This document shows positions 15,157 through 48,108 of a stretch of DNA of 64,000 nucleotides, in pieces. The translations under genes and the position numbers were made by a program. The stretch spans positions 124,001 through 188,000 of the forward strand of contig JAHBWE010000014.1 in NCBI GenBank assembly GCA_019637155.1. Direction: 5' to 3'. Source of the DNA: Labilithrix sp. GTDB taxonomy: Bacteria > Myxococcota_A > Polyangia > Polyangiales > Polyangiaceae. Below the pieces are notes generated by a model that was not told where the DNA came from, ran no database searches, and saw only the letters and a program-made list of their open reading frames with translations. Positions within the stretch are counted from its first letter, which is position 1. Each line of letters opens with the position of its first letter.

Positions 15157-15299
15157 CTGGTGCGTCCGCTCTGGCGCGTGCGCCGGTGTGTTCGGTGCGT
15201 GGGGCGGCGCTCCGACGTGCATGGGCGCGTGCGGCGTGCGCCAGCGCGTCATGCGGTCGCCGCGCCGTCGCGCCAGCGCGTTCGCGCTACGCTGCGCGT

Positions 15300-16547
15300 G
15301 TGCGTGGGAGGGTGCGGTCGATCGTTGGGGGCTCGGCTGGGAACCTCGTCGAGTGGTACGACTGGTACGTCTACTCTGCGTTCTCGCTGTGGTTCGCGCC
15401 GGTGTTCTTTCCGGCGGGGGACCGTACGTCGGAGCTGCTCTCCGCCGCGGCCGTGTTCGCGGTTGGGTTCGTCGTGCGGCCCGTCGGCGCGTGGGTCATG
15501 GGCGCCTACGCGGATCGCCGCGGGCGGAAGGCCGGGCTCACGCTCTCCGTCAGCCTCATGTGCGCCGGGTCCCTCATCATCGCGTGCACGCCGGGGCAGC
15601 GCACGATCGGAGCCGCCGCCCCCGTCATCCTCGTGATCGCGCGGCTCGTGCAAGGGCTCAGCGTCGGCGGCGAGTACGGCGCGAGCGCCACCTACCTCTC
15701 CGAGATCGCCACGCGCGAGCGCCGCGGCCTCTGGTCGAGCCTGCAGTACGTCACGCTCATCGCAGGACAGCTGCTCGCGCTCGGCGTCCTCATGCTCCTG
15801 CAGGCCACGCTCGGTCGCGAGGCCCTCGCGGCGTGGGGCTGGCGCGTCCCGTTCGCGATCGGCGGCGCGCTGTCGGTCGGCGTCTTCTGGCTGCGGCGCG
15901 GCCTCGTCGAGACGCTGCGCGCGCCCGCCGATCGGCCCGCGCCGTTCCTGCTCCTGCGCCGGCATCCGCGCGAGTTTGCGCTCGTGTTGGGGCTCACGTC
16001 GGGCGGGACGCTCGCGTTCTACGCGTACACCACCTACCTCCAGAAGTTCCTCGTCCTCACCGCGGGCTTCTCGAAGGAGACCTCCACCCGCATCACCGCC
16101 GCGGCGCTGTTCGCGTTCATGCTGCTCCAACCCGCCGTCGGCGCGCTCTCGGACCGCGTGGGGAGGCGCCCCGTCATGATCGCGTTCGGCGTGCTCGGCA
16201 CGACGCTGACGTATCCGCTCTTCAGCGCGCTCGCGCGGACGCGGGCCCCGTACGCGGCGTTCGCCCTCGCGCTCGGCGCGCTCGTCATCGTCTCCGGCTA
16301 CACCGCCATCAACGCGGTCGTGAAGGCGGAGCTCTTCCCCGCCGAGGTGCGCGCCCTCGGCGTCGCGTTCCCGTACGCGCTCGCGAACACGATGTTCGGC
16401 GGCACCGCGGAGTACGTCGCGCTCTGGCTCAAGACCCGCGGCAGCGAGCACCTCTTCTACGTCTACGTCAGCGTGATGATCGCCGCGTCCCTCGTCGTCT
16501 ACGTCCGCATGCGCGACACGCGAACGCACTCGCGGATCACGGACTGA
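15300..16547 (+). CDS. MFS transporter, metabolite:H+ symporter (MHS) type
   Basis: About 415 residues from GTG 15300 (GTG 15312 also possible), with roughly twelve hydrophobic segments. The N-terminus GNLVEWYDWYVYSAFSLWFA is characteristic of the MHS group, which includes alpha-ketoglutarate, proline/betaine and citrate permeases. The MFS signature between TM2 and TM3 is ADRRGRKAGL, the second half has SDRVGRRPVM, and 'GLSVGGEYGAS' follows TM4. It would import a carboxylate or amino acid by proton symport at the inner membrane; the substrate cannot be told. It converges with the hybrid kinase gene, leaving 15 bases. Confidence 0.88.
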   Translation: MRGRVRSIVGGSAGNLVEWYDWYVYSAFSLWFAPVFFPAGDRTSELLSAAAVFAVGFVVRPVGAWVMGAYADRRGRKAGLTLSVSLMCAGSLIIACTPGQRTIGAAAPVILVIARLVQGLSVGGEYGASATYLSEIATRERRGLWSSLQYVTLIAGQLLALGVLMLLQATLGREALAAWGWRVPFAIGGALSVGVFWLRRGLVETLRAPADRPAPFLLLRRHPREFALVLGLTSGGTLAFYAYTTYLQKFLVLTAGFSKETSTRITAAALFAFMLLQPAVGALSDRVGRRPVMIAFGVLGTTLTYPLFSALARTRAPYAAFALALGALVIVSGYTAINAVVKAELFPAEVRALGVAFPYALANTMFGGTAEYVALWLKTRGSEHLFYVYVSVMIAASLVVYVRMRDTRTHSRITD

Positions 16548-35594: not shown

Positions 35595-36356
35595 TCACGT
35601 CGAGGCCTTCGCCCGTTGCACACCAACGCTGCGTGAGCCCCGGGGCCCCAGAAGCGGCCGCGCAAGCGGGCGCGAAGCGCCCCGAGCGCGAAGCGCGAGG
35701 GCCGTGTCTGGGGTGGGGTGTCGGGGCGAAGCCCCGACGTTGAGTGCGGGGATGAAGCGGTCGTGGGTGTCGTCGAAGGCGAGGAGTTTTGCGTTCGGGA
35801 TGTCGAACCACCAGGCGTGGAGGGTGAGCTCGCCGCGGCGTTCGCGGCGCGCGACGTGCTCGTACGTGCGGAGGTTGTCGAGCTGCCGTCGCGCGTTGAT
35901 CTGCGAGAGCTGATCGACCGGCGCGTACGACGGATCGTACGGTCCTCGCTCCGTCCAGATCGCGAGCGACGCGGCGGCGGGCGTGAGCCAGCGCTGGAGA
36001 TGCTCCGGCGCCACGTCGCCCATCACCGCTTGCATGCCGCCGCAGCCGGAGTGGCCGCACACGACGATCTCGCGGACGCCGAGCACCTCCGTCGCGTACC
36101 AGACCGCCGACGCGACGCTCACGTCCGCGCCGTGTCCGTCGTCGCAATGGGGATGCACGAGGTTCGCGACGTTGCGGACGACGAAGAGATCGCCGGGCCC
36201 GGCGGAGGCGACCAGGTGCGGGACCACGCGACTGTCGGCGCAGCCGATGAACATCGCGAGCGGGTCCTGCCCGCTCGCGAGCTCGGCGAAGCGCGCGCTG
36301 TAGCGCGGCCGCTGGAGGGTTTCATAGCGACGGATCCCATCGTTGAGCGACTTCAC
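35595..36356 (-). CDS. Beta-class carbonic anhydrase with repeat-derived C-terminal tail
   Basis: 253 residues. Zinc ligands and catalytic pair are in CADSR (Cys39, Asp41, Arg43) and HSGCGG (His102, Cys105). 'HAWWFDIPNAKLLAFDD....RFIPAL' is the normal C-terminal strand of this family, near residue 206. The next ~47 residues (from NVGASPRHPTP) are unlike any carbonic anhydrase. They are the direct translation of structured repeat copy B plus flanking bases. It interconverts CO2 and bicarbonate. Either the original stop was lost or the element inserted at the 3' end; the enzyme core looks intact. Confidence 0.93.
   Translation of the reverse strand: MKSLNDGIRRYETLQRPRYSARFAELASGQDPLAMFIGCADSRVVPHLVASAGPGDLFVVRNVANLVHPHCDDGHGADVSVASAVWYATEVLGVREIVVCGHSGCGGMQAVMGDVAPEHLQRWLTPAAASLAIWTERGPYDPSYAPVDQLSQINARRQLDNLRTYEHVARRERRGELTLHAWWFDIPNAKLLAFDDTHDRFIPALNVGASPRHPTPDTALALRARGASRPLARPLLGPRGSRSVGVQRAKAST
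35641..35744. repeat. Structured intergenic element, copy B (inverted, inside carbonic anhydrase 3' end)
   Basis: Reverse-complement copy of the element at 33563-33664 with only a few mismatches, including the same GTCGGGGC/GCCCCGAC hairpin (35720-35738). Unlike the other copies it is in an open reading frame, coding the C-terminal tail of the carbonic anhydrase. Copies A and B flank the FHA-GGDEF, peroxidase and carbonic anhydrase region as an inverted pair about 2 kb apart. Confidence 0.88.
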
Positions 36357-36552
36357 GGTTCGGGAGCCACTTCAATCCTCGTGCCTTCGCGCGCCGCGGC
36401 GCGATCTCCCCGCGATCGTGCGCTTTCGCGCTACGGCCGCGTTCGCCGTCGTCGGCCGCGCCCGACGCTGCGACGTCGGCGGCCTCCGACACGGAAAAAT
36501 AGGCGCGAAATAGCGCGGCAGCATTTGCGCGCGTGTCTAAGATCCGAGGCCG

Positions 36553-36600
36553 ATGCCGTCCACCCTCGCGACCCGGATGCCGTCCACCCTCGCGACCCGG
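36553..36600 (+). repeat. Perfect 24-bp tandem duplication at a gene start
   Basis: Bases 36553-36576 are repeated exactly at 36577-36600, each coding MPSTLATR. The histidine kinase therefore has two equivalent ATG starts in frame. The second one probably corresponds to the ancestral start. Confidence 0.95.
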
Positions 36601-38016
36601 CTCGGGATTACGCACGGCGCGCTCGTTGTCGTCCTCGCTGTGCTCCTCGTCGTCACGCTGCAAGGGCTCGTGCGTATGCTCGGCGTGATGACGGTCATCC
36701 GCGACCAGCGCCTCTCCTCGCTCGACGCCGAGGAAGAGCTCCATCGCGCGGCGTGGCAGGTCGAGGTCGCGCTCCGCCACGGACGCAACGACTGCGTGGA
36801 GGGGAAGTCGGAGGTCCCGCTTCGCCAGCACCTCGCCGAGGCGCGCGCGCAGTTCGAGGAGGTGAGCACGCGGACGGCGACCGAGGTCGCGCCCGCGCTC
36901 CGCGACGTCGCCGCGAAGTACAAGACGTTCGCCGACGACGCGCTCGCCGGCGGCACGTGCGCCTTCCTCACGCGTCAGAGCTCGGACGAGCGGCGCCTTC
37001 GCCTCGACGAGGAGCTGACCGACACGTGGATCGATCGCCTGCAGGACGTGCACACCGACATCGAAGCGAAGGAGGCTCGCGCGCGCGACATCGGCAGCCG
37101 CACGACGCGGAGCGGCCTCATCGTCGCGGCGGTGGGCGCGATCGCCGCCGTCATCGTCGTGCGCTGGACGGCCGCGAGCGTCACGCGACCGATCGCGCGG
37201 CTCGCGGCGGCCGCGCGGCGCCTCGGGGAAGGGGAGTTCACGCCGATCGCGTCGGTCGGCGGCCCACACGAGGTGGAGGCGCTGCGCCTCGATCTCGAGC
37301 GAACGCGCGAGAAGCTGCTCGGGCTCGATCGCATGAAGCAGAGCTTCCTCGCGAGCGTCTCCCACGAGCTGCGCTCGCCGCTCGGCCGCCTCCGCGAGGC
37401 CCTCGCGCTCCTCTCCGACGGGACGGTGGGCGATCTCAGCGCGCAGCAGAAGCGCGTCGTCACCCTCGCGAGCCGCGCGTGCGAGCAAGAGGTGCGCATC
37501 GTCGAGGCGCTGCTCGACATGACGCGCATCGGCTCGGGCATGCCGGTGCAGCGCGAAGCGGGCTGCGACATCGTGCGGATCATCGAGGCCGCGGCGGAGG
37601 CCGAGCGGCCCGAGGCGACGGCGCGCGGCGTCACGATCGAGGTCGACGCGGCGGGGACCTTCCCGAGCATGACGCTCGACAGCGCGCTCGTGGAGCGCGC
37701 GATCGCGAACCTGGTCCGCAACGCGGTGTCGGTCTCGCCGAAGGCGAGCAAGGTCCGCGTCGTCGCGACGCTCGACGACGGCCGCGTCCGCATCGACGTG
37801 CACGACAACGGACCGGGCCTCGATCCGGAGCTCGCGGACAAGCTCTTCCAGCCGTTCAACGCCGTCGCGGTGAAGGCGGCGGGGCGCCCGGCCGGCATCG
37901 GCATCGGCCTCTCGATCGTGCGCGAGGTCGCGCGCGCGCATCACGGCGACGTCGCGGTCTCGCGCGAAGCCGACACCACGACGTTCCGCCTCGAAATCGC
38001 CACGGAGCAAACATGA
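36553..38016 (+). CDS. Membrane sensor histidine kinase (HAMP-HisKA-HATPase)
   Basis: 487 residues. N-terminal duplicated MPSTLATR, TM1 (ALVVVLAVLLVVTLQGLV), a ~125-residue periplasmic helical sensor with two Cys, TM2 (GLIVAAVGAIAAVIVVRW), HAMP ('TRPIARLAAAARRLGEGEF'), HisKA with VSHELRSPLGRL, and HATPase_c with NLVRNAVSVSP, DNGPGLDPEL and GIGIGLSIVREV. Its stop overlaps the start of the NtrC-type regulator (ATGA), so the two form a classic two-component pair. The signal is unknown. It is divergent from the carbonic anhydrase. Confidence 0.93.
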   Translation: MPSTLATRMPSTLATRLGITHGALVVVLAVLLVVTLQGLVRMLGVMTVIRDQRLSSLDAEEELHRAAWQVEVALRHGRNDCVEGKSEVPLRQHLAEARAQFEEVSTRTATEVAPALRDVAAKYKTFADDALAGGTCAFLTRQSSDERRLRLDEELTDTWIDRLQDVHTDIEAKEARARDIGSRTTRSGLIVAAVGAIAAVIVVRWTAASVTRPIARLAAAARRLGEGEFTPIASVGGPHEVEALRLDLERTREKLLGLDRMKQSFLASVSHELRSPLGRLREALALLSDGTVGDLSAQQKRVVTLASRACEQEVRIVEALLDMTRIGSGMPVQREAGCDIVRIIEAAAEAERPEATARGVTIEVDAAGTFPSMTLDSALVERAIANLVRNAVSVSPKASKVRVVATLDDGRVRIDVHDNGPGLDPELADKLFQPFNAVAVKAAGRPAGIGIGLSIVREVARAHHGDVAVSREADTTTFRLEIATEQT

Positions 38017-39446
38017 GCGACGTCCCTCACGTCCTGTTGGTCGACGACGATCAGGAGCTCTGCGAGCTCCTCTCCATCCGCATCGAAGCCGCCGGCTACC
38101 GGATCTCGGTCGAGCACGACGTGAAGGGCGCGCTCGCCCGCGTCGGCCGCGAGCAGTTCGACTGCGTGCTCCTCGATCTCCGCCTCGGCAACGAGAACGG
38201 CTTCGACGTCCTCGACGGCGTCGCGAAGCGGAGCGCGGAGATGCCCGTCATCATGATCACGGCGCACGGCACGATCGACCTCGCGGTCGAGGCGATGAAG
38301 AAGGGCGCGACCGGCTTCGTCACGAAGCCGTTCCACGATCACGACCTCCTCCAGAAGGTGAAGCAGACGATCGAAGCGAGCCGCATGCGCCGCGAGCTCG
38401 CCGGCCTGCGCCGCCTCGTCGGCGCGCCGGACGATCGAACGCGCCTCGTCGGCGTGAGCCCCGCGATCGAGCGCGTGCGCGAGATGATCGCGCTCGTCGC
38501 CGGCTCCGACAGCACGGTCCTCATCCTCGGCGAGTCGGGCACCGGCAAGGAGCTCGTCGCGCGCTGCATCCGCGCGCTCTCTTCGCGCAAGGACGGCCCC
38601 TTCGTCGCCGTGAACTGCGCGGGCCTCTCCGCGGAGCTCCTCGAGAGCACGCTCTTCGGCCACAAGCGCGGCGCGTTCACGGGCGCGGTCGCGGATCGGG
38701 AGGGCCTCTTCGGCGCGGCGAAGAAGGGCACCCTCTTCCTCGACGAGATCGGCGAGACGCCGCTCGAGGTGCAGGCGAAGCTGCTCCGCGTCCTCCAAGA
38801 ACGCCGCTACACCGCGGTCGGCTCGACGATGGAGCAGGAGGCGGACGTGCGCATCATCGCGGCGACGAACCGCGACCTCCGGCAAGAGATCGCGGAGAAG
38901 CGCTTCCGCGAGGACCTCTTCTACCGCCTGCACGTCGTCCCGATCGCGATGCCGCCGATCCGCGATCGCGCCGACGACATCCCGCTCCTCGCGGAGATGT
39001 TCCTCGAGCGCGCGGCGGCGCGGATGAACCGCCCCGCGCCGAAGCTCGGGCAGCGCGCGCTCGCGGTCCTCACCGCCCATCCGTGGCCGGGCAACGTGCG
39101 CGAGCTCGAGAACGTGATGGAGGCGGCGGTGCTCCTCTGCCGCTCCGACGAGCTCGACGTGAACCACCTGCCCGGCATCGGCACCGCGACCTCTCCCGCG
39201 CCGGCGGGCGGCCTCTCGGACATCGCCCGCGGCTCGGAGGCGATGTTCGCGCCCTACCTCCCCGCGAGCGCGCCCGCTCCGCCCCCGCTCCGCGAGGCCC
39301 GCGACGCCTTCGAGCGCGCCTACGTGCACGCGATCCTGAAGCGCTCCGGCGGCAACGTCACCGCCGCCGCGAAGCTGGCCGAGCGCAACCGCACCGACTT
39401 CTACGACCTCATGCGCCGCCACGGCGTCACCCCGCGCCGCGACTGA
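38013..39446 (+). CDS. NtrC-family sigma-54-dependent response regulator
   Basis: 477 residues. Receiver ~1-120 (LVDDD, phospho-acceptor in LLDLRLGNENG, Lys in VTKPF). AAA+ domain ~140-375 with Walker A GESGTGKE, the sigma-54 contact motif GAFTGA, Walker B TLFLDEIGE and an arginine-finger region. Fis-type helix-turn-helix at the end ('GGNVTAAAKLAERNRTDFYDLMRRHG'). Phosphorylated by the upstream kinase it should activate sigma-54 promoters. Targets are not obvious nearby. Confidence 0.96.
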   Translation: MSDVPHVLLVDDDQELCELLSIRIEAAGYRISVEHDVKGALARVGREQFDCVLLDLRLGNENGFDVLDGVAKRSAEMPVIMITAHGTIDLAVEAMKKGATGFVTKPFHDHDLLQKVKQTIEASRMRRELAGLRRLVGAPDDRTRLVGVSPAIERVREMIALVAGSDSTVLILGESGTGKELVARCIRALSSRKDGPFVAVNCAGLSAELLESTLFGHKRGAFTGAVADREGLFGAAKKGTLFLDEIGETPLEVQAKLLRVLQERRYTAVGSTMEQEADVRIIAATNRDLRQEIAEKRFREDLFYRLHVVPIAMPPIRDRADDIPLLAEMFLERAAARMNRPAPKLGQRALAVLTAHPWPGNVRELENVMEAAVLLCRSDELDVNHLPGIGTATSPAPAGGLSDIARGSEAMFAPYLPASAPAPPPLREARDAFERAYVHAILKRSGGNVTAAAKLAERNRTDFYDLMRRHGVTPRRD

Positions 39447-39449
39447 GGC

Positions 39450-40118
39450 TCAGGCGGGGCGGTATTCGTTCCAGTACTCTTCCAGGTGGTCTTCGTAGTC
39501 GGCGTCGAAGGAGACGATCTCGTTCAGGAAGGTGGTCCCCTTCGCGGTGAGGACGTCCGAGTCCAAGACGAAGCCCTCGTGCACTCCGTCGCGCGCGTAC
39601 GAATCGAGGCCGGCTTTGTTCAGGAGCTTCTTCTGTTTGAAGAACTTCATGCTCTGGTCGATCTTGTCGACGACGTGAGCCCTGATCTTGGGTGAAAACA
39701 TCCTTGGAGACCCGTACCAACGGTACTTCGGGTCCACCTGTTTGGCCTTGTGCAGCGCCTCCAGGATGTTCTCCATCGCGACGCACGTGGGGGAGCTCCC
39801 CGTCATCTTGGACTTGTCGATCTTCAGCGACGTGGGGAGAGCTCTCTGGCCGACCACCTTCCAGGCCCCCCATCCGACACCAGTGAGTTGAACGGCCAGG
39901 TGTCGTCCCCAATGAGGGTGCCGGAGATAGCTCGAAGGGGTCACCTCGGCGTCGAACCGTACCTTGGTCGAGAAGTGCGGGAGGACGCCGATGACGCCGC
40001 TGTCTCTACGGCTCACCTCGAGCACGTGCACCAAGGCGTAGCCGCGCTTGCCGAAGGGGACGGCGATCACGTCCCCCGGCGTCGGCTTCTTCCCGTCCGA
40101 GGCGGCGCTCCGTCCCAT
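39450..40118 (-). CDS. Hypothetical protein, possibly Imm26-like
   Basis: About 222 residues from ATG 40118 (GTG 40133 alternative). The N-terminal third, 'PTPGDVIAVPFGKRGYALVHVLEVS', resembles the Imm26 immunity-protein start (G-D-x-F/I-A-V-P), but the rest is not recognised. GC content and codon use are clearly lower than the neighbours, suggesting acquired DNA. It lies 24 bases after the ThiF-like gene on the same strand, so it may be the last gene of the ubiquitin-like operon, perhaps an immunity or accessory factor. The assignment is weak. Confidence 0.6.
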   Translation of the reverse strand: MGRSAASDGKKPTPGDVIAVPFGKRGYALVHVLEVSRRDSGVIGVLPHFSTKVRFDAEVTPSSYLRHPHWGRHLAVQLTGVGWGAWKVVGQRALPTSLKIDKSKMTGSSPTCVAMENILEALHKAKQVDPKYRWYGSPRMFSPKIRAHVVDKIDQSMKFFKQKKLLNKAGLDSYARDGVHEGFVLDSDVLTAKGTTFLNEIVSFDADYEDHLEEYWNEYRPA

Positions 40119-40142
40119 GGCTCGACCATACACCGAGCGGCC

Positions 40143-40724
40143 CTACTCCGCCGTCACCGTGACGCCGGAGAGGGCGATCATCGCGTCGCGCTTGGTGCCC
40201 TTCGCGACGAAGTCCTGGACCGTGCGCGCGAGCGTGGACGACACGAGCGCGATGAGCGGCAGGTGCTCGCCGCCCTCGCACGTCGCCTGTCCGGGCGCGC
40301 CTTCCTCGTCGGCGACGAAGCGCTCGTCCCACCGCACGAGCCCGAAGGTCCCGTCGGCGGAGACGGCCGCGTGCACGAGCGGCTTGTCCGCGGCGCGCGC
40401 CCAGGTCGAGAGCGTGCGCCGCGACTTCGCGTTGTCGAACGCGTCGACGACGAGGTCCGCGTTCCCGCAGAGCGTCGCGACGTTCGTCTCTTCGACGCGC
40501 ACGCCGAACGACTCCGCCTTCACGCCCCAGAAGTTCGCGAGCTGCAGCTTGAGCGCCTCGGCCTTGTTCTTCCCGACCGACGGCTTCACGAACGCCTGCG
40601 AGAGGCAGTTCTTCGACTCGACGCGGTCGAAGTCGACGAGCACGAGCTGCGCCTCGAGGTTCCGGCAGAGGACGACGGCGTTGGAGCCCAGCGCCCCGAC
40701 CCCACAGAAAACGATGCGCTTCAT
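40143..40724 (-). CDS. ThiF/E1-like adenylyltransferase
   Basis: 193 residues, short for the family. Nucleotide-binding loop GVGALGSNA (residues ~8-16), then VLVDFDRVESKNCLSQ. The usual NLNRQ has Ser in place of the Arg finger. Also present are GKNKAEAL and the Asp/Asn pair in 'VVDAFDNAKSRR', and a candidate thioester Cys in 'GQATCEGGEH'. The zinc CxxC pairs of MoeB/ThiF are missing. It probably adenylates the C-terminus of the ubiquitin-like protein encoded just upstream. A very good ribosome site (AAAGGAGG) precedes the start. Confidence 0.85.
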   Translation of the reverse strand: MKRIVFCGVGALGSNAVVLCRNLEAQLVLVDFDRVESKNCLSQAFVKPSVGKNKAEALKLQLANFWGVKAESFGVRVEETNVATLCGNADLVVDAFDNAKSRRTLSTWARAADKPLVHAAVSADGTFGLVRWDERFVADEEGAPGQATCEGGEHLPLIALVSSTLARTVQDFVAKGTKRDAMIALSGVTVTAE

Positions 40725-40746
40725 GCTCGCCTCCTTTCAGGCGAAG

Positions 40747-40998
40747 TCAGCAGCCGAAGGGGACCTTCGGGCGCAGGTAGATCCGACGGCCGCCCTGCGG
40801 CGTGTCGAAGCGGTCGACGACGTAGTCGTCGAAGGCGTTGTCGCGCAGGTGCGCGACCTGGAGACCGCGGACGCCGCCGGAGCGGACGACCTCGATCGCG
40901 ATGCGACGAACGTCCCGATCGTTGAGCTGGTAGTCGACGTCGAGCGGGTAGTCGGCGGAGAGACCGTTGTAGGTGATGTTGAGGACTGCCTGGTTCAT
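40747..40998 (-). CDS. Small ubiquitin-like (beta-grasp) protein candidate ending Phe-Gly-Cys
   Basis: 83 residues. The order beta hairpin ('AVLNITYNGLSADYPLDV'), helix ('NDRDVRRIAIEVV'), then strands ending 'RRIYLRPKVPFGC' fits a beta-grasp fold, as in Prok_Ub / PRTRC protein C. The Gly followed by one final Cys suggests that a terminal residue is trimmed, or that Cys takes part in the linkage. It lies between the JAMM peptidase (start/stop overlap ATGA) and the E1-like gene, which is the best argument for the assignment. Similarity by eye only. Confidence 0.65.
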   Translation of the reverse strand: MNQAVLNITYNGLSADYPLDVDYQLNDRDVRRIAIEVVRSGGVRGLQVAHLRDNAFDDYVVDRFDTPQGGRRIYLRPKVPFGC

Positions 40999-41423
40999 GG
41001 GATCTTCTCTTTCTCGGACCGCTCCGCCACAGCCGGCCGGGCTTTATCTCTGCTCATTCCGGAGGCCATCCGCAAGAGGGCGGCCCACCACGGCTCCGCG
41101 CCGGAGAGCACTTCGTCCGGCGCGGGCGGGCCCTCGTCCGAGGCGAGCCTCTGCACGCGGCGCACGATGCCGTGCGGCGCGACGACCGCGAACGTCATCG
41201 GCTTGCCGAGCGCCGAGACGAGCGCCGCCATCGTCGTCTCGTCCTCGCGCGAGAACGCGAGCGGGCCGACCGGGTGCGAGTGCACGATCTCGGCGATCCG
41301 ATCGCGGCGCGACCAGATCGCCTCCCAGCGCGCGCGCGAGTCCGGGAGGAGCACCGGGCTGTCGGAGGCGTCCGACCAGAGCACGTTCTGGTTGTCGTCG
41401 ACGAGGAGGAAGACTTCACGCAT
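40995..41423 (-). CDS. JAB/MPN (JAMM) metallopeptidase, deubiquitinase-like
   Basis: 142 residues. The JAMM zinc motif is complete: His48-Ser-His50-Pro, then Ser58 and Asp61 (HSHPVGPLAFSRED), with an upstream Glu (Glu45, IAEIVHSH) and an N-terminal beta strand EVFLLVDDNQNVLW. This family removes or matures ubiquitin-like tags. The gene lies 21 bases after the unknown 321-residue gene and overlaps the ubiquitin-like gene, so the peptidase could trim the Cys after the terminal Gly or remove the tag from targets. Confidence 0.87.
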   Translation of the reverse strand: MREVFLLVDDNQNVLWSDASDSPVLLPDSRARWEAIWSRRDRIAEIVHSHPVGPLAFSREDETTMAALVSALGKPMTFAVVAPHGIVRRVQRLASDEGPPAPDEVLSGAEPWWAALLRMASGMSRDKARPAVAERSEKEKIP

Positions 41424-41444
41424 GGGATTCGAATCGTTGTCACG

Positions 41445-42410
41445 CTAGCGGCGCGTGATGACGAGGACGTCGTCCTCGATCGCCTCGCGGATGACGCCCG
41501 GGAGCGCATCGAGGGTGATGAGCTCGTCCGCGCCCGCGAGGCAGACGCCCGAGTCGTAGACGTGGAGCGTGATCGCGTCGACCACGCTGATGAAGCGCTC
41601 GCTCATGAACATGAACGTCACTTCGACGTTGCCGTTGCCGAGGTTGCGGCACGAGAGCATGCGCGCGTCCGCGGCGGCGAGGGTCTCCTCCGCGCGCAAC
41701 GCGGCGTTGTCGACGGACGGCTGATGACGCGCGGGCGTGCGGTACGCGACGACCTCGCGCGGCCGCTGGCCGGCGAGGATCGCGTGGATGCGCGCGCGCT
41801 CCATCTCCTCGGCGCGGCGCGCGTCGAGGGCGACGAGGAACGGACGCGCCGCGGGCTCGCCTTCGTCGGCGACGCGACGGGCGGCGGACAGCGCTTCGCG
41901 CACGCTGACGTCGACGCCGACGTCGCGCGCGACCGCCGACGCGAGCGCGACGCCGTACGCGGTGCGGAGCGTGAGGGCGGCCCCTTTCAGCTCGCCGAGC
42001 GCTTCCTTCTGTTCGAGCTTGAGGCGAGCGGCTTCTTCCGGCTCGCCGTCGAAATCGAGCGACTCGAACACGAGATCGCCCGAGTGCCAGCGCCGCGCGC
42101 GCACGAGCGCAAGCGGCGGCGGCTCCTCCGCGGGCAGGAGCTCGATGCGCTCCGCGCGGGTCTTGAGCTCGCTCGACACGAGCCACCCGCGCACGTGATG
42201 ACCACGCACGCGCGGGAGCCCTTCGAGCGCCGGCGAATCCACCGCCTCGATCGCGCGGGCGTTGCGGCCCTTGATCTCGAAGCGGTGGAAGCCGGGGGGC
42301 GGACGAGGCTCGTCCACGCGCACCCGCCGGTCCTTGCCATAGGCAAAGGGCCCGCCGAGGTACGCGAGGACGGCCTCCTCCTTCTTGTTCAGGAACTTCC
42401 CGTAATCCAA
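41445..42410 (-). CDS. Unknown 321-residue protein, possible E2-like conjugation factor
   Basis: Start is TTG 42410, in the same reading frame as the upstream TROVE gene and separated from it only by a TAG stop and two codons. The protein has no signal or membrane segment. The central part is Ala/Arg/Glu-rich and helical. Near the C-terminus 'ITLHVYDSGVCLAG' (Cys about residue 297) resembles the H-P-N...G-x-I-C-L active site of E2 enzymes. The spacing is shorter and no other E2 mark is clear. Its place between TROVE and JAMM/Ubl/E1 genes supports an E2-like role. It could instead be an adaptor. Confidence 0.6.
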   Translation of the reverse strand: MDYGKFLNKKEEAVLAYLGGPFAYGKDRRVRVDEPRPPPGFHRFEIKGRNARAIEAVDSPALEGLPRVRGHHVRGWLVSSELKTRAERIELLPAEEPPPLALVRARRWHSGDLVFESLDFDGEPEEAARLKLEQKEALGELKGAALTLRTAYGVALASAVARDVGVDVSVREALSAARRVADEGEPAARPFLVALDARRAEEMERARIHAILAGQRPREVVAYRTPARHQPSVDNAALRAEETLAAADARMLSCRNLGNGNVEVTFMFMSERFISVVDAITLHVYDSGVCLAGADELITLDALPGVIREAIEDDVLVITRR

Positions 42411-42416
42411 GCTCGC

Positions 42417-44213
42417 CTACGAGGGCAGCGCGAGGAGCGGGGTCGCGAGGACGCGCTCGAGCCAACCGACCTGGGCGGCGACCGCAGATGCTCCCGGCCC
42501 CAGCTTCGGGGCCTCGAGCAGTGCACCGAGGACGCGGGGGACCTGGTACGGGTCTTCGAACTGGTCGATCTTCACCTCGGAGTACGGGACGCCGAGCGCG
42601 CGAGCGCACGACTGGACCGTGGTTCCGCGGCCGCTCGAGACGTTGACGAGCATCGCGATCGCCGCGACGGTGTAGCCGAAGTCGTTGAACGCGCGCGCGA
42701 GGTGCGCGCCGTCTTCACCGGCCTCGTCACCGACGACGATGACGATGAGCTGGTGTCCCGCCGCGATGCGGACCCCCGAAGCATGCAGCGCGCGGAGCGC
42801 CGCTGCGTGCATCGTTCCTCCGCCCGCCTTGATGCCTCCGAGCATGTGCTGCACGGCGGCACGGGTGGCGGCCTTGGGCTTGAGCACCGTTCCGACGGTG
42901 TCGAAGCTCGCGATGTGCACGTGCTCCGGCGGGAACCCCGCGAGGATACGCGACAGCGCTTCCTTCGACTTGTCGATCGCGCCTTCCATCGATCCGGACT
43001 TGTCGATGAGGAACATGACGTCGATCGGCTGCTCGGCGGTCGCCTCCTTCACCGCGTTCTTCGCCGCGTTGTCGGACGCCTCCTCGAGCTTCGACTTCAG
43101 CTCCTTCGAGCGGACGTTCTTCGCGATGTTGAGCGCGCGCTGGTCGGTCGCCTGCGCGATCGCCTTCTCCCAGCGCTTGCGGATCTCGGGCTCGGTCATG
43201 AGGCCGAGCTCCTCGAGCGTGGGGGTGAGCATGCGGAGGTCACGGTCCGAGAGCGACGGGAGCAGCGCCACCATGATGGCGGGCGTGAGCCCGATGTCCT
43301 TCGGGAGCCGTCCGACGACGTCCTTGTGCGAGAGCTTCTGCATGACGATCGCTTCGCAGATCTCGGCCTCGGAGAGACCGTCGAACCGCTCGCGCTTCTG
43401 CAGCTTCATCGTCCCGGAGAGACCCACCTCACGGTGACCTCCCGCGGACTGCTTCTGCTTCCAGCCGAGGACCTCGAAGAACGCCTGCGTCTCCGGCTTG
43501 TAGCCGGACTTGCGCGCGATGTTCTTGATCGTCTCCTTGTATCCCGCCTTCACGAGACCCTGGAGCATCGGCAGGTTCTTCTCGCGCAGGGCGAGCCACC
43601 GCGTCGCGGCGCGCTTCCAGCGGCCGAGCTGCGGCTTCTTCGAGTCGGGGTCGGCGAAACCGGCGATTCGGTTCAGCTCGGCGATATCGGGCGTCTCGAG
43701 CAGCTCCGCGATGCGGAGGACCGCCTTCGGCGTGAGCATCTTGGTGCTCTTCTTCTCGTAGAAGAGCGCCATCGCCTCACCGACCGCGCGCCAGTCGTCG
43801 TCGTGGAACCCGACGCTTCCGTCGTCGTCCTTGATCGGCTGTCCGGCGTGCGGCTGGACGAGCATGAGCGCCGCGCACGCGACCTTGAGGTCACGCCACT
43901 CGGTCTGCGTGAGCGCGTACGACGCGAAGCGCGCCATGAGCTCCGAGTTGAGGTTGTAGATGTCGATGAGGCGCTCGTAGAGCTTCACCGCCGCGGGGAC
44001 GAAGAGCCCCGGCTTGACCGCGGTGCCGCGCGAGAGGACGTCCTTCTTCGCGCCGCGCTTCGCGTGCCACGTCCCGTTCAGGTCGAGCCCGGGCCGGTTG
44101 TGCCAGAGGTGGGCGGACGAGGAGAGGACGAGATCGAGCATCTTCTCGGCGGGCCCCTTCTGGGCCTCCGCGAGGATGCTCTGGTGGGGAGTGGTGTTGG
44201 TGGTCATGGTCAT
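42417..44213 (-). CDS. Ro60-like TROVE-vWA RNA-binding protein
   Basis: About 598 residues (ATG 44213, or 44207). The N-terminal ~370 residues form a helical HEAT-like TROVE module ('WHNRPGLDLNGTW', 'WRDLKVACAALMLVQPHAGQ', 'KRAATRWLALREKNLPMLQGLVKAGY'). The C-terminal vWA domain has the metal site DKSGS (about residue 403) and GGGT...H. In animals and Deinococcus such Ro proteins form a ring that binds misfolded RNA and Y RNA. Here the gene heads the ubiquitin-like operon. GC is lower than in the flanks. Confidence 0.9.
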   Translation of the reverse strand: MTMTTNTTPHQSILAEAQKGPAEKMLDLVLSSSAHLWHNRPGLDLNGTWHAKRGAKKDVLSRGTAVKPGLFVPAAVKLYERLIDIYNLNSELMARFASYALTQTEWRDLKVACAALMLVQPHAGQPIKDDDGSVGFHDDDWRAVGEAMALFYEKKSTKMLTPKAVLRIAELLETPDIAELNRIAGFADPDSKKPQLGRWKRAATRWLALREKNLPMLQGLVKAGYKETIKNIARKSGYKPETQAFFEVLGWKQKQSAGGHREVGLSGTMKLQKRERFDGLSEAEICEAIVMQKLSHKDVVGRLPKDIGLTPAIMVALLPSLSDRDLRMLTPTLEELGLMTEPEIRKRWEKAIAQATDQRALNIAKNVRSKELKSKLEEASDNAAKNAVKEATAEQPIDVMFLIDKSGSMEGAIDKSKEALSRILAGFPPEHVHIASFDTVGTVLKPKAATRAAVQHMLGGIKAGGGTMHAAALRALHASGVRIAAGHQLIVIVVGDEAGEDGAHLARAFNDFGYTVAAIAMLVNVSSGRGTTVQSCARALGVPYSEVKIDQFEDPYQVPRVLGALLEAPKLGPGASAVAAQVGWLERVLATPLLALPS

Positions 44214-44435
44214 GGTCGTGTCACCGTCGGAGCGCCGCCTGCTCGCTCGGCCGGATCGGCACGAAACCCGAGCGTCGCTCCCCTTTCCGCCGCCTGACAA
44301 GAGTCGACGGCGTCTTACCGCCGCGCGGGGTTTGGCGACCTTCGAGCTCCCGCCTCGAACACCGCCTCGCGCGACGCGCCAGAGGTTGAGCACGCGCCCC
44401 GCTCTTGTCCAGCCCCTCCCCAGCCGCGACGCGAT
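44214..44435. other. 222-base spacer upstream of the TROVE operon
   Basis: No gene is visible between the Doc gene stop and the TROVE start. It must hold the operon promoter if the two are not one transcript, and contains the inverted-repeat segment listed separately as a possible RNA. Confidence 0.6.
44296..44409 (-). ncRNA. Possible Y RNA-like structured RNA (weak)
   Basis: An 8-bp inverted pair GACAAGAG/CTCTTGTC closes a 114-base segment (arms 44296-44303 and 44402-44409). Inside are two hairpins: a 6-bp stem with 7-base loop extended by GGCG/CGCC after an internal loop (44334-44366), and a 5-bp CGGCG/CGCCG hairpin (44308-44323). Size, closing stem and position directly upstream of a Ro-like gene fit a bacterial Y RNA. 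However, an 8-bp inverted pair is not unlikely by chance in 222 bases, and no tRNA-like T-loop was recognised. Confidence 0.25.
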
Positions 44436-44831
44436 CTACTCGAGCGCGACGGGATCCCCGCCCATCGCCGCGGTGAAGAGCGCGGTGAGCTCGTCCCGCG
44501 AAAGCTCGCCCGCCGCGAGCCGCTCGATGTGACGGATCCACTCATTACCGAGCTTCAGGCGCGGAAATCCGTTCGTCTTGAGGAACGCGCCGCCGATCGT
44601 CAAGCCGGTGCGCTTGTTGCCGTCGAGGAACGGGTGATTCTTCACGATGCCGTGCGTGTACACCGCCGCGAGCTCCGCGAGAGAATTGTAGTAGCCGGTC
44701 CGAGGCGCCATGACGGCTGACTCGAGGAGGCCGCGATCACGGACACCGTCCTGGCCTCCGTCCTTCGCGAGGACGCGCGAGTGAGCTGCGAGGACCTCGT
44801 CGACGTCGACGAACACGACATCGAACTTCAT
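44436..44831 (-). CDS. doc: Doc-family toxin (Fic-fold)
   Basis: 131 residues with the Doc active motif HPFLDGNKRTG (His66 to Arg74). The position held by Gly in AMP-transferring Fic proteins is Lys, as in Doc, which phosphorylates elongation factor EF-Tu to halt translation. 'RDRGLLESAVMAPRTGYY' is the typical upstream helix. Its ATG overlaps the stop of the small upstream gene (ATGA), the normal order for antitoxin then toxin. Confidence 0.9.
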   Translation of the reverse strand: MKFDVVFVDVDEVLAAHSRVLAKDGGQDGVRDRGLLESAVMAPRTGYYNSLAELAAVYTHGIVKNHPFLDGNKRTGLTIGGAFLKTNGFPRLKLGNEWIRHIERLAAGELSRDELTALFTAAMGGDPVALE

Positions 44832-45037
44832 TTCGAGAGCGCGGTCAGGATTTCGCCGTGGTCGGCGACGAACTCTTCGACCGCTGCAGCGAAGCGCGCA
44901 TGTTTGGCTTCGTGCGCGAGCTTGATCGCGAGCTCCTTTGCCGCGGTCGAGACGCTCACGCCGGCCTCGATCCGATCGGCGATCTCGCGGATCCCACGAA
45001 CGGTCTCGGCATCGGTCAGCGTCGTCGCAGCAGCCAT
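44828..45037 (-). CDS. Small putative antitoxin of the Doc toxin
   Basis: 69 residues, ATG 45037. It is helical with an Ala/Glu/Lys-rich C-terminus ('AHEAKHARFAAAVEEFVADHGEILTALSK') and is not recognisably of the Phd family. Position and 4-base overlap with the toxin gene are the main evidence. The 'ADRIEAGVSVSTAAKELAIKLA' stretch could be a dimerisation or helix-turn-helix region. Free C-terminal helix may plug the Doc site as Phd does. Confidence 0.65.
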   Translation of the reverse strand: MAAATTLTDAETVRGIREIADRIEAGVSVSTAAKELAIKLAHEAKHARFAAAVEEFVADHGEILTALSK

Positions 45038-45147
45038 GCCCAAAAGGCTAGCACGCGGGCTGGGCCGTGCGAGCGCGGCCCGAGGACATGACACGAGGCC
45101 ACGTCCTTCGTGAACGTGGCCTCGGTCGATGCGGGTCGGAGGCGCGA

Positions 45148-45660
45148 TCAGCCGGAGACGGTGATCTTCTTCATCTGCACCGGCTCGATCGGGCGGTCGC
45201 TGCGGGTGCGCACCTTTTCGATCTTGTGCACGACGTCCATGCCTTCGATGACGCGGCCGAAGACCGGGTGCTTCGACGCGCCCGGCGTGAAGAAGTCGAG
45301 GTACGCGTTGTGGACCGTGTTGACGAAGAACTGGCAGGAGCCGCTGTTCGGCCGGCCCGTGTTCGCCATCGAGAGCGTGCCCGGCTCGTTCGAGAGCTTC
45401 GCGTCCGCGGGGTGCTCGTCCTGGATCGTGCCGTCCGGGCCGTCGCCCGTGCCCGCGCGCGGGCTGTTCGGGTCGCGGCTGTGCGGGCAGCCGAACTGCA
45501 GCATGAAGCCGTCGATGACGCGGTGGAAATGGAGGCCGTCGTAGAAGCCGCTCTTCGCGAGCTTCACCCAGTTGCCCGCCGTGATGGGCATCTTGTCGAC
45601 GAAGAGCTCGACGGTGAAGTTGCCGAGCGTGGTCTCGCAGAGCGCAGTGGGGTTCGCCAT
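45148..45660 (-). CDS. Cyclophilin-type peptidyl-prolyl isomerase
   Basis: 170 residues, no signal peptide, so cytoplasmic. Active-site residues are present: '[15 protein letters not shown]' (Arg, Phe, Gln), '[18 protein letters not shown]' and '[14 protein letters not shown]'. It catalyses cis-trans isomerisation of X-Pro bonds. It seems a single-gene unit with ordinary chromosome codon use, marking the right edge of the low-GC island. Confidence 0.96.
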
Positions 45661-45700
45661 GGCGCACGAACCTACCCGGCGCGCGACGGCGAGGGAAGAG

Positions 45701-46219
45701 TCAGCGGCGATCGATCTCGACCGGCAGCGCCATCGTGAGCGCCTGCGCCTGCGGAAGGAACTCCCACGCCTTCACGTGCGACTCGACGCAGTCGCGCATC
45801 ACCGGCGACGCGCCCGACGCCGCTGCATAACGGATCCGGCCGTCGACGCCGACCTCGAGCGCGACGGTGAGCCGCGCGGTGCCCTGCGTCCCCAGCCCCG
45901 CCCAGCACGGCGTGCCGATGTCGTGCGCGTGGAGACGAACGATGTTGTCGAGCATCGCGTCCGGCGCCGCCGGAGGAAGCGACGCGCTCGCGTCGCTCGA
46001 GCGACCGATGCTCAGCGCCGCGATCAGCACGAGACCGAGGAAGATGCCGGCCACGAGGTAGCCGCTCATCCCCACCCACTGCTGCGGGATCTTCAGCTTC
46101 GCCGCGATGCCCGCGAGCGGATGCGCCGGCGGCGGCACCGAGTGGCTCGCGTCCAGGTCCATCGCCACCGGGGCATCGGTCGTACGGTTCCGCGGGTTGA
46201 AGTCGCTCTCGTACGTCAT
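45701..46219 (-). CDS. AgmX/TonB-C-like membrane protein
   Basis: 172 residues from ATG 46219. N-terminal cytoplasmic ~50 residues, one TM ([19 protein letters not shown]), then a C-terminal ~95 residues with '[44 protein letters not shown]'. This is the same TonB-C/AgmX pattern as the lipoprotein at 20165-20719, with two conserved Cys. A periplasmic binding or motility role is likely but not shown. Confidence 0.75.
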
Positions 46220-46376
46220 GGCGAATTCAGAAACTGCAAACGCGAGGCCACCCGCCGTCGTGGATCCAGGTTGATCCCAGAGCTGCGCAACACGGTCCCA
46301 AGTGCCCGAAACCACGAGGTGGTATCCCTCACTCTCGCCGCGATCCCTACATGTCCGATTGAGATCGAGAGGATCC

Positions 46377-46400
46377 GGGGGTGTCCGCTTCCAAACCCCC
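46377..46400 (-). terminator. Possible hairpin downstream of the L,D-transpeptidase gene
   Basis: GGGGGT (46377-46382) pairs with ACCCCC (46395-46400) around a 12-base loop, shortly after the stop at 46423 on the minus strand. No U-run follows, so factor-independent termination is uncertain. Confidence 0.3.
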
Positions 46401-46422
46401 AGGGTTGCGCGGAAATGTTCGC

Positions 46423-48108
46423 TTACGGGTGGACGATGACGACCGTCCCCTTGTTCGGATCGATCTGCACGCCGTGCCAGCCGTCGGGGACCGGCGGGTC
46501 CGTGAAGCGGAACACGCGCATCGCGTCGATGGGCGCCAGGTTGATGCACCCGTGGCTGCGTGGGATCCCGAACCGGTCATGCCAGTAGGCGCTGTGGATG
46601 GCGTAGCCCTCGTGGAAGTACTGGACGTAGGGGACGTCGCGCAGCTCGAAGGAGGTGTCGTGCTGGTCGTCCGCCGCCGCCGCTTCGCCCGCGTTCGGAT
46701 CCGGCGGCGCGCCGCCCGAGACCGACGAGCGCTCGCCCGAGTCCATCGTCGCCGTGATGTGCTTGCTCTTGAGGCGGAAGAAGCCGCGGATCGTCGCCTT
46801 CGAGTTCTTCGGATCCTTCACGCCGTCCTGCCCGGCCGAGACCAGCGTCGTGAAGACGGGCTTTTTGCCCTCCCACATGACGAGGACCTCGTCCACGATC
46901 GCGACGTCGATCCACTTCTCGCCGCGCTCCGCCGCGCCGGGCCAGCGATGCGGCGTCATCGCGATCGCGAGGTCGCGCTCGCGCATCCAGTAGCCCGCCT
47001 TCGTCTCGTAGTAGGGGACGTCGTCGAACACCTCCCGCACCCCCGTGAGCTGGAGGAACGCGCGCGACGGGATGACGTCGCTCTCGCGCTTCATCCGCTT
47101 GCCGTTCTCCGACTTCCGATAGATGCGTCGGCACGCCTTCATCTCCTCGCCGCGCTTCTTCGGATCGCACGGCCGCGCGAAGGCGAGCGGCAGCTTCATC
47201 TCGGGCGTGATCTCGACGCCGTGGAACGGCGACCCGACCTCGGGCTTCACCTTGTCGATCGGGAGGAGGCGCAGGTCGACGGTGACGGCGAAGCGACGAT
47301 GATCGAGGTTGTCGCCCGCGTCGAAGGTGCCGATGAAGGACACGCCGGTGTGGCGCTTCACCATGTTCGCGAAGAACGACTCCGGCTTCACGTCGAAGCC
47401 CTGCACGTTCGGGATCGCGCGGTTGCCGTTCTCGATCCAGAACGGCGGCGGGTCCGCGTTCGACTTGCCGCCGAGGAGGACTCCGTCCGGCGTGTCCTCC
47501 GCCGGCGGCACCACCGCGGCGTCGGGGATGAGCTCGCGCGCGTGCTCGTTCGCGCCGCTGCCGACGCGCTGCTCCTCGGGGTGGTTCGCGAACCAGCGGA
47601 AGTGGTTCTCGATCTTGTACTCCTGCTTCTTCTGCTCGGCGCGCGACGGCACGCGGAGGTAGAGCGGCGACACCGAGCGGACGAAGCCGTAGGCGTACGG
47701 GAGCGGCTTCGACGTGTCGGGCCGCACGCTCGCTGCTTTCACGATAAGCGGATAATCATCGATAGACGCATATTTCCCGCTACACACGAAGCCGCGGGGG
47801 GCGATGCCGTACCAGCCGCCGGGGCAGTTCGCGTTGCCGTACGGCGTGTCGCTGCGCGAGACGACGGTGCCGAGGCGGAGGTATCCGATCTTCTTCACCG
47901 TGTCGGGGGTCTCGTAGATCGGCACGTGCATGCCCGCCGCCGCGAGCTTCGCCACCTTCGAGAGCACGACCGGCGGAGGAGCGTTCGCCAGCTGTCCCGA
48001 CGCGATCGTCGCCGCGGCCGGCATGTCGCCGTCCTTCTTGCATCCGATCGCGCTCGCGCCGGTGAGGGCGACGAGCACGACGAGCGCGGTGGAGATCGGG
48101 GTCCGCAT
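46423..48108 (-). CDS. L,D-transpeptidase (YkuD) lipoprotein
   Basis: 561 residues. Start ATG 48108 gives a signal with lipobox (TGASAIGC). A long N-terminal part contains an SH3-like region ('PIYETPDTVKKIGYLRLGTVVSRSDTP'). The C-terminal YkuD domain has the full active site: His in 'AIHSAYWHDRFGIPRSHGCINL', with SHGC. It would form 3-3 cross-links or attach lipoproteins to peptidoglycan, in the periplasm. A 203-base spacer separates it from the AgmX-like gene. Confidence 0.92.
   Translation of the reverse strand: MRTPISTALVVLVALTGASAIGCKKDGDMPAAATIASGQLANAPPPVVLSKVAKLAAAGMHVPIYETPDTVKKIGYLRLGTVVSRSDTPYGNANCPGGWYGIAPRGFVCSGKYASIDDYPLIVKAASVRPDTSKPLPYAYGFVRSVSPLYLRVPSRAEQKKQEYKIENHFRWFANHPEEQRVGSGANEHARELIPDAAVVPPAEDTPDGVLLGGKSNADPPPFWIENGNRAIPNVQGFDVKPESFFANMVKRHTGVSFIGTFDAGDNLDHRRFAVTVDLRLLPIDKVKPEVGSPFHGVEITPEMKLPLAFARPCDPKKRGEEMKACRRIYRKSENGKRMKRESDVIPSRAFLQLTGVREVFDDVPYYETKAGYWMRERDLAIAMTPHRWPGAAERGEKWIDVAIVDEVLVMWEGKKPVFTTLVSAGQDGVKDPKNSKATIRGFFRLKSKHITATMDSGERSSVSGGAPPDPNAGEAAAADDQHDTSFELRDVPYVQYFHEGYAIHSAYWHDRFGIPRSHGCINLAPIDAMRVFRFTDPPVPDGWHGVQIDPNKGTVVIVHP

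What the first reader, a model, noticed from the sequence alone, without database searches (positions are those of the whole stretch)
39450..44213. Ro60-like TROVE protein in one operon with a complete-looking ubiquitin-like system
Seen: six minus-strand genes with gaps of at most 24 bases, in the order TROVE-vWA, unknown protein with Gly-x-Cys-Leu, JAMM peptidase, 83-residue protein ending Phe-Gly-Cys, E1/ThiF-like enzyme, and an Imm26-like protein. JAMM and ubiquitin-like genes overlap by ATGA. Known: prokaryotic Ubl-E1-E2-JAB modules (PRTRC-type, Bil-type) and bacterial Ro proteins have both been described. Inference: here the tag system may modify, or be recruited by, an RNA-binding ring, in RNA surveillance or phage defence. 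The lower GC suggests transfer. I cannot verify whether this pairing has been reported.
Basis: partly seen in the sequence, partly recalled or inferred. Interest (0 to 1): 0.88.

Follow-up and report, generated by a model that had tools for sequence, protein, structure and literature searches.

The report
Ro–Y-RNA operon with ubiquitin-like system
In myxobacteria and some relatives, a protein resembling the RNA-quality-control protein Ro60, small partner RNAs that imitate transfer RNA, and a small ubiquitin-like tagging system are inherited together, which suggests that bacteria may tag proteins with the help of an RNA-protein particle.

Summary
Five minus-strand genes (40143-44213) form one operon: a divergent Ro60/TROVE-like HEAT-vWA protein, a 321-aa protein with Gly-x-Cys-Leu, a JAMM peptidase, an 83-aa ubiquitin-like protein (Ubl) and a ThiF/E1 enzyme. 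The sixth gene (Imm26-like) does not belong: it is absent from all 79 related loci.
The operon, or its scattered parts, recurs across Myxococcota. In 284 genomes the Ro-like gene occurs in 11, the Ubl in 11, both in 10. Pfam TROVE does not hit the Ro-like protein, but a profile chain links it to TROVE, and Y RNAs with a circularly permuted tRNA module lie directly upstream of it in 38 loci, on the operon strand; 24 of 31 pairs show compensatory changes. The window's genome carries such RNAs on another contig.
Every Ubl has a Pro-Phe-Gly near its C-terminus. All 27 with residues after it have a JAMM gene; the six genomes without JAMM all have a Ubl ending exactly at Gly. JAMM therefore probably matures the Ubl.
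Best reading: a Ro-Y RNA particle coupled to a dedicated Ubl transfer pathway. Conjugation, targets and biological role are inferred. No report of the pairing was found in the held literature.

The parts
42417..44213 (-). P1, divergent Ro60/TROVE-like protein: helical region (about 20-390) plus vWA domain (395-580) with intact MIDAS (DKSGS, T467, D496)
   Evidence: VWA_2 E 2.7e-8, no TROVE hit. MIDAS D-x-S-x-S in 76/76 homologues. Profile chain P1 - HEAT-vWA family (L014-L016) - TROVE. Y RNAs directly upstream in 38 related loci.
41445..42410 (-). P2: N-terminal tandem OB-like domains (about 10-120), helical middle, C-terminal alpha-beta4-Cys290-alpha domain resembling the E2/UBC core
   Evidence: AlphaFold model pLDDT 93; Mpa/ARC tandem-OB match Z 7.3. 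Gly-x-Cys-Leu in 66/69 homologues. Truncated homologue without this domain in a genome in which no Ubl was found.
40995..41423 (-). JAMM peptidase (candidate zinc-site residues E3, H48, H50, D61; S58)
   Evidence: Prok-JAB 25.9 bits over cut-off 25. HxHP..SxED motif with an upstream Glu in 51 of 57, Glu-His spacing mostly 45.
40747..40998 (-). Ubiquitin-like protein, mature C-terminus predicted at Phe-Gly82, one-residue tail (Cys83)
   Evidence: Predicted beta-beta-alpha-beta-beta, pLDDT 86; structural rows nearly all beta-grasp. Pro-Phe-Gly in 38/38 homologues.
40143..40724 (-). E1/ThiF-like adenylating enzyme (GxGxxG, N39, Q43, K54, D97; candidate catalytic Cys149 in TCE)
   Evidence: PF00899 E 5.6e-20. 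Aligns with MoeB through the TC region, E 4e-13. TCE in 29/29 homologues.
39450..40118 (-).
   Evidence: No significant family; no homologue in 79 related loci; lowest GC of the group, 62%.

Best explanation
The operon encodes a Ro-type ribonucleoprotein with a dedicated ubiquitin-like transfer pathway. P1 is a Ro-like protein that binds Y RNAs through their conserved closing stem; the other end of each RNA imitates tRNA (the RNAs are well supported, the binding is inferred). JAMM trims the Ubl precursor after Pro-Phe-Gly (supported by co-variation of gene content). The E1 adenylates the exposed glycine and loads the Ubl on its Cys149 (inferred from family and motif). P2 accepts it on Cys290 of its E2-like C-terminal domain, while its OB-like N-terminal region connects it to P1 or to RNA (inferred from the predicted fold and from its truncation where the Ubl is missing). 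The target is unknown. The most economical guess is a protein that docks on the tRNA mimic, such as a tRNA-cleaving nuclease or an RNA-decay enzyme, or P1 itself. Gene content and RNA identity are shown here; the transfer steps and targets are inferred.
For: Order P1-P2-(JAMM)-Ubl-E1 conserved across Myxococcota. Of 284 phylum genomes 11 have P1, 11 the Ubl, 10 both (Fisher 1.5e-16). Of 25 genomes without an adjacent Ubl, 23 carry it elsewhere. Ubl with tail plus JAMM 27/27; JAMM absent only where the Ubl ends at PFG (6 genomes); Fisher 2.8e-4. Y RNAs: 73 copies within 1.5 kb upstream of P1 in 38 loci; 94% of cells paired, covariation 0.66 against 0.20 shuffled. Of 29 genomes without an adjacent copy, 21 have one elsewhere. 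The R1 RNA is found in 8 of 284 genomes at E<=1e-6, 6 of them with P1. Predicted folds of Ubl and P2. In L037/L121 P2 lacks the Cys domain and no Ubl was found in the genome.
Against: No Pfam TROVE hit for P1, and no structure was predicted for P1. P2 shows no sequence match to any E2 family and lacks an HPN motif; E2 chains appear only at non-significant Foldseek E-values. In the window's own genome the Y RNAs lie on another contig, upstream of a second TROVE gene, so they may serve that protein there. One genome (G283) keeps JAMM-Ubl-E1 without P1. Relatedness of the sequences inflates the Fisher values.
Confidence: 0.55

Rival explanations
1. Sulfur-carrier model. The Ubl is a ThiS/MoaD/TtuB-type sulfur carrier. 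The E1 activates it for thiocarboxylation and the sulfur goes to tRNA or to the tRNA-like module of the Y RNA; P2 Cys290 is a sulfur relay or part of the RNA-modifying step. JAMM matures the carrier.
For: The E1 is closest to MoeB/ThiF/TcdA rather than to conjugation E1s. The RNA partner is a tRNA mimic. TtuA/TtuB thiolation of tRNA in Thermus is the precedent (PMC7138817). P2 has OB-like domains that could hold RNA.
Against: No thiouridylase, rhodanese or Fe-S protein is recognisable in the operon. The C-terminus has one Gly (PFG), not GG. The Cys domain of P2 resembles E2 topology.
Confidence: 0.2
2. Self-regulation: the Ubl is attached to P1 or P2 to gate the Ro particle or its RNA release, much as the CBASS E1-E2 protein modifies its own CD-NTase. 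No external target exists.
For: All parts are kept together, with no separate conserved effector gene seen. P1 and P2 persist as a pair even in a genome where no Ubl was found. Precedent PMC10097602.
Against: If the Ubl only served to control P1, loss of the Ubl with P1 kept (L121) should be harmful; the diversity of tRNA modules in arrays suggests outside partners.
Confidence: 0.2
3. Loose co-inheritance: the Ro RNP and the Ubl module are separate systems that travel together in a mobile or stress-response neighbourhood rich in tRNA arrays.
For: tRNA arrays lie around many loci, as in mobile regions. In Myxococcaceae and Hyalangium the genes are split.
Against: Retention of the parts after splitting argues for a shared function rather than hitch-hiking, and P2 loses its Cys domain where the Ubl is missing.
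Confidence: 0.1

Closest known systems
rsr-yrlBA-rtcBA RNA repair operon (Salmonella; Ro60 orthologue Rsr with YrlA/YrlB RNAs)
   Same: Ro-type protein with tRNA-mimic Y RNAs encoded beside it (PMC7790460)
   Different: RtcB/RtcA and RtcR are replaced by P2, JAMM, Ubl and E1; P1 is too divergent for the Pfam TROVE model; the Y RNAs form arrays of up to seven copies and score below the YrlA cut-off
Prokaryotic Ubl-JAB-E1-E2 operon type 6d of Iyer 2006 (by my own knowledge the PRTRC type)
   Same: Separate genes for Ubl, JAB, E1 and an E2-like protein (PMC1779556)
   Different: E1 reaches only 31.7 of 144.75 bits on PRTRC_ThiF; Ubl and P2 match no PRTRC or Prok_Ub model; Ro-Y RNA partner instead
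CBASS Cap2/Cap3 and Bil systems (defence-linked Ubl conjugation)
   Same: Ubl-like transfer with a JAB peptidase and an E1 fold (PMC10097602 for CBASS; Bil from general knowledge)
   Different: E1 is a small separate protein here; no CD-NTase; PADLOC E1-E2 models match only the E1 region
TtuB/TtuA/TtuC of Thermus (sulfur carrier for tRNA thiolation)
   Same: Ubl plus ThiF-type E1 linked to tRNA biology (PMC7138817, PMC3980101)
   Different: No TtuA-like thiolase seen; tRNA mimics and a Ro-like protein present
Deinococcus Rsr-Y RNA-PNPase particle
   Same: Ro protein plus Y RNA acting as a tether for a partner enzyme (PMC7790460, introduction)
   Different: The tethered partner here would be a Ubl pathway; no PNPase in the operon

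Membership tests
Ro60/TROVE family | Match to the Pfam TROVE model (PF05731) | tested here: not met
   No hit for P1 or ten homologues at E<=10, while canonical TROVE proteins of the same phylum do hit. P1 is therefore called Ro/TROVE-like, not a PF05731 member.
Ro60/TROVE family | Helical region plus vWA domain, related in sequence to TROVE proteins | tested here: met
   hhalign: P1 to the L014-L016 family E 6.3e-20 (helical part alone 1.8e-6); that family to TROVE E 2.9e-11 (helical part alone 3.9e-5); pair E-values, not database E-values. The direct P1-TROVE helical comparison is weak (E 0.048).
Ro60/TROVE family | Cognate Y RNA encoded next to the gene | tested here: met
   38 loci with R1 Y RNA within 1.5 kb upstream on the same strand; 21 of 29 others elsewhere in the genome. 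In the window's genome only in trans.
Ro60/TROVE family | RNA-binding ring structure | not tested
YrlA RNA (RF02553) | Rfam gathering score | tested here: not met
   Best match in the P1 loci scanned with Rfam 40.5 bits against 69.
YrlA RNA (RF02553) | Closing stem formed by the two ends plus circularly permuted tRNA module | tested here: met
   Consensus and covariation on 20 sequences; conserved T-arm, acceptor hairpin, D-arm.
Ubiquitin-like modifier | Beta-grasp fold | tested here: met
   Predicted beta-beta-alpha-beta-beta, pLDDT 86. Rows include ubiquitin Z 5.5, PI3K domains, PB1, MOCS2A and protein G. Z is modest, and Foldseek alone is not significant.
Ubiquitin-like modifier | Conserved C-terminal glycine reachable by E1 | tested here: met
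   PFG in 38/38; tail and JAMM co-vary.
E2 conjugating enzyme (UBC) | Sequence match to a UBC family | tested here: not met
   No E2 family among the matches listed for 56 members at E<=10; no E2 in PDB sequences with the domain profile.
E2 conjugating enzyme (UBC) | Alpha-beta4 core with active cysteine before a second helix | tested here: inconclusive
   Topology and Cys290 position fit; E2 chain 4ds2 only at Foldseek E 1.2; domain not searched alone.
E1/ThiF | ThiF fold with ATP-site residues and catalytic cysteine | tested here: met
   PF00899 over cut-off; MoeB alignment includes the TC motif.
JAMM peptidase | E - HxHP - SxxD zinc motif | tested here: met
   Present in the window protein; 51 of 57 fit the strict pattern.
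PRTRC (6d) system | PRTRC family models for E1, Ubl, E2 | tested here: not met
   E1 below cut-off; no PRTRC hit for the others.
Bil/CBASS ubiquitin-like systems | System-specific E1-E2 protein | tested here: inconclusive
   PADLOC E1-E2 models align only with the E1 part of P5.

The most novel reading that the evidence does not exclude
RNA-guided protein tagging: arrays of tRNA-mimicking Y RNAs act as baits on a Ro particle, and proteins that bind the bait (anticodon nucleases, phage or competitor proteins acting on tRNA) are tagged by the co-encoded ubiquitin-like pathway.
Probability: 0.25. Interest if true: 0.96.

Novelty: new variant of a known kind. Interest (0 to 1): 0.86.

Why it matters
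The roles of bacterial Ro60 and of tRNA-mimic Y RNAs remain largely open. A conserved operon that joins them to a complete-looking Ubl pathway gives a concrete candidate partner and an accessible test bed: cultured Myxococcus, Corallococcus and Archangium species carry it. If conjugation is shown, it would link RNA quality control to ubiquitin-like tagging in bacteria. The absence of JAMM only where the Ubl has no tail is in itself a clean evolutionary experiment on Ubl maturation.

Tried and rejected
Direct Pfam and PDB searches for TROVE in P1 found vWA-type matches, not TROVE. The direct profile comparison of P1's helical region with TROVE was too weak alone (E 0.048), so an intermediate family was used. 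Pfam and PDB sequence searches with the Ubl family found nothing significant. Searches for an E2 relationship of P2 by sequence were negative. No E2 chain appeared among the shown VIA rows for P2, which cover mainly residues 11-121. A Y RNA inside the window was sought with Rfam (38500-46500), R1 and a motif and was not found; the 141-nt leader of P1 folds no better than shuffles. The neighbouring sigma-54 regulator gene (35718-39446, + strand) was considered as an RtcR analogue and rejected: it has a receiver domain, no RtcR/CARF domain was reported, and only one related locus holds a similar gene. Imm26 and low-GC transfer rejected. A low-threshold YrlA scan was set aside as noise-prone because control genomes also rang. 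The NAR 2016 RNA-repair paper was not held, so an earlier mention there cannot be excluded.
Full report
1. What is there. The minus strand from 44213 to 40143 carries five tightly packed genes: P1 (598 aa), P2 (321 aa, TTG start), a JAMM peptidase (142 aa), an 83-aa protein ending Phe-Gly-Cys and a ThiF-type E1 (193 aa). Gaps are 6, 21, -4 and 22 bases. It is left out of the system. The GC argument for transfer fails: operon 69.0%, window 70.0%.

2. Conservation. A first survey of 284 Myxococcota genomes gave ten full-length P1 relatives outside the window's genome, most followed by P2, JAMM, Ubl and E1 in the same order, with P1 and E1 about 38-45% identical in the distant group. A scan of one genome per species added 79 loci, mainly Myxococcota including cultured Myxococcus, Corallococcus, Archangium, Pyxidicoccus and Hyalangium, with a few metagenome bins labelled otherwise. 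Profile search shows the same module in most. In Myxococcaceae the module is split: P1-P2-JAMM is followed by several kilobases of other genes, many on the opposite strand, and then Ubl-E1, or the Ubl lies elsewhere in the genome, as in 23 of 25 genomes tested. In Hyalangium P2-JAMM has moved away from P1 and Ubl-E1. Across the 284 genomes P1 occurs in 11, the Ubl in 11, both in 10 (Fisher 1.5e-16; genomes are related, so the value is indicative). The exceptions are G283, which keeps JAMM-Ubl-E1 without P1, and G078, described in section 6.

3. P1 is Ro-like. Pfam and PDB searches see the vWA domain only. The MIDAS motif is intact in 76 of 76. Canonical TROVE proteins exist in the same phylum, one of them on contig C31 of the window's own genome. 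The direct profile comparison of the helical parts is weak (E 0.048), but an intermediate HEAT-vWA family (L014-L016) bridges the two: P1 to intermediate 6.3e-20 (helical part alone 1.8e-6), intermediate to TROVE 2.9e-11 (helical part alone 3.9e-5), and L016 hits the Ro60 vWA model weakly. These are pair comparisons, not database E-values.

4. The Y RNAs. Upstream of P1 in L082 and L084 lie about 150-nt elements with a strong closing stem and, inside it, a T-arm, a hairpin made of the two acceptor strands, a D-arm and an anticodon-like arm: a circularly permuted tRNA, the layout of YrlA as I know it. Another copy in L082 matches Rfam YrlA at 40.5 bits, E 1.4e-5, below the cut-off of 69. A motif scan found 38 copies in 22 loci, all on the operon strand; L109 has seven in tandem with different anticodon-like loops. 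Conserved blocks are CCUACACGCA on the 5' side and ACUCGG on the 3' side. On 20 copies 93.9% of cells pair, 24 of 31 pairs have double changes, and covariation is 0.66 against 0.20 in shuffles and at most 0.13 when slid. The model R1 finds copies within 1.5 kb upstream of P1 in 38 loci (73 copies) and never on the opposite strand of a P1 locus. Of 29 genomes without an adjacent copy, 21 have one elsewhere. In the 284 genomes R1 occurs in eight at E<=1e-6: six with P1, and one (G151) beside the intermediate family protein L016. The window has none, but its genome has an array on contig C31 about 4 kb upstream of its second TROVE gene. In two P1 genomes, G103 and G116, no canonical TROVE was found and the Y RNA lies directly before P1. 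This is strong evidence that P1 is the protein of a Ro-Y RNA particle, although binding itself was not tested and in the window's genome the array may serve either or both Ro proteins.

5. The ubiquitin-like side. The 83-aa protein is predicted as beta-beta-alpha-beta-beta with a flexible tail (pLDDT 86). The structural rows are almost all beta-grasp folds: PI3K Ras-binding and adaptor-binding domains, ubiquitin (Z 5.5, 63 residues, 3.2 A), PB1, MOCS2A and protein G; Foldseek alone gives nothing below E 0.07. All 38 homologues carry Pro-Phe-Gly near the end. In 27 sequences, the window included, residues follow that glycine, and every one of these genomes has a JAMM gene, in Hyalangium at a distant place. 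In 12 the protein ends exactly at glycine, and six of these genomes have no JAMM match anywhere (Fisher 2.8e-4). The six include one close relative (L063) and a distant group, so at least two separate losses are likely, and in L107 the JAMM reading frame looks damaged beside a tail-less Ubl (assembly error not excluded). The simplest reading is that JAMM matures the Ubl, which makes sense if the glycine is used by the E1. The E1 is nearest MoeB, ThiF and TcdA, keeps ATP-site residues and has an invariant TCE whose cysteine aligns with the TC motif of MoeB. The JAMM carries a Glu about 45 residues before HxHP-SxxD.

6. P2. The model is confident (pLDDT 93). Residues 10-120 resemble the tandem OB domains of the proteasomal ATPase Mpa/ARC (Z 7.3, 99 residues, 3.4 A) and single OB folds of IF1 and EF-P/eIF5A; Z below 8 can be a common arrangement. 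The last 85 residues form helix, four strands, a loop with Cys290 and a helix, the order of an E2 core, with G-[IVL]-C-L in 66 of 69, but no E2 family matches by sequence and no HPN precedes the cysteine. In G078 (L037/L121) P2 stops before this domain and no Ubl was found in the genome, as expected if the domain works with the Ubl. E2-like function is a reasonable but unproven inference.

7. Mechanism. Shown: gene content, order, RNA structure, co-inheritance, tail-JAMM dependence, predicted folds. Inferred: P1 binds the Y RNAs; E1 loads the Ubl; P2 is the next carrier; the Ro particle scaffolds or directs transfer. [quoted passage not shown] Extending that idea, diverse tRNA mimics could serve as baits for proteins that are then tagged. 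The main rivals are sulfur transfer to RNA as in TtuA/TtuB (PMC7138817) and self-modification of the particle, for which CBASS is the precedent (PMC10097602).

8. Novelty. Separate Ubl-JAB-E1-E2 operons (PMC1779556) and Ro-Y RNA operons (PMC7790460) are known. No paper found in the held library joins the two, but important papers are not held. I rate it a new variant of a known kind.

Noticed in passing
L072:14179-16398, L125:1218-7756, L123, L120, L128, L129, L132, L082: tRNA genes and tRNA-like genes are strikingly dense around the operon: 102 ARAGORN calls in 1.07 Mb of related loci, 101 of them on the operon strand, including arrays of 25 and about 30. This may mean a link to tRNA damage or a mobile neighbourhood.
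   Followed up: partly
L109:7057-7197, L103:6745-6885, L102:1967-2106, L110:7839-7977: Some Y RNA closing stems hold a tRNA-like module in normal rather than permuted order.
   Followed up: partly
L015:2650-3612 (minus strand): Upstream of a HEAT-vWA relative, tRNA-like genes look interrupted by an insert that carries the Y-stem motif (GCUUCC..ACUCGCGCG..GAAGC-UACACAC), as if the Y RNA were linearised differently.
   Followed up: partly
G000 contig C31:26931-34721 (L184): The window's genome has a second TROVE gene that Pfam does recognise, with a Y RNA array upstream and an HNH endonuclease gene (L184:7988-8521) between them; a similar HNH gene lies among the tRNAs of L082 (6507-7037).
   Followed up: partly
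window 44436-45037: A Fic/Doc protein with a small upstream partner, a likely toxin-antitoxin pair, sits just upstream of the operon on the same strand.
   Followed up: no
L014, L015, L016: A HEAT-vWA family of about 480 aa, with no Pfam family beyond weak vWA hits, bridges P1 and canonical TROVE proteins; Y RNA-like elements lie beside L015 and L016.
   Followed up: partly
window 35718-39446 (+): NtrC-type sigma-54 response regulator gene convergent with the operon; a similar gene lies in only one of 79 related loci.
   Followed up: yes
window 15001-16000: Strong local AT skew of -0.44 in the composition profile.
   Followed up: no
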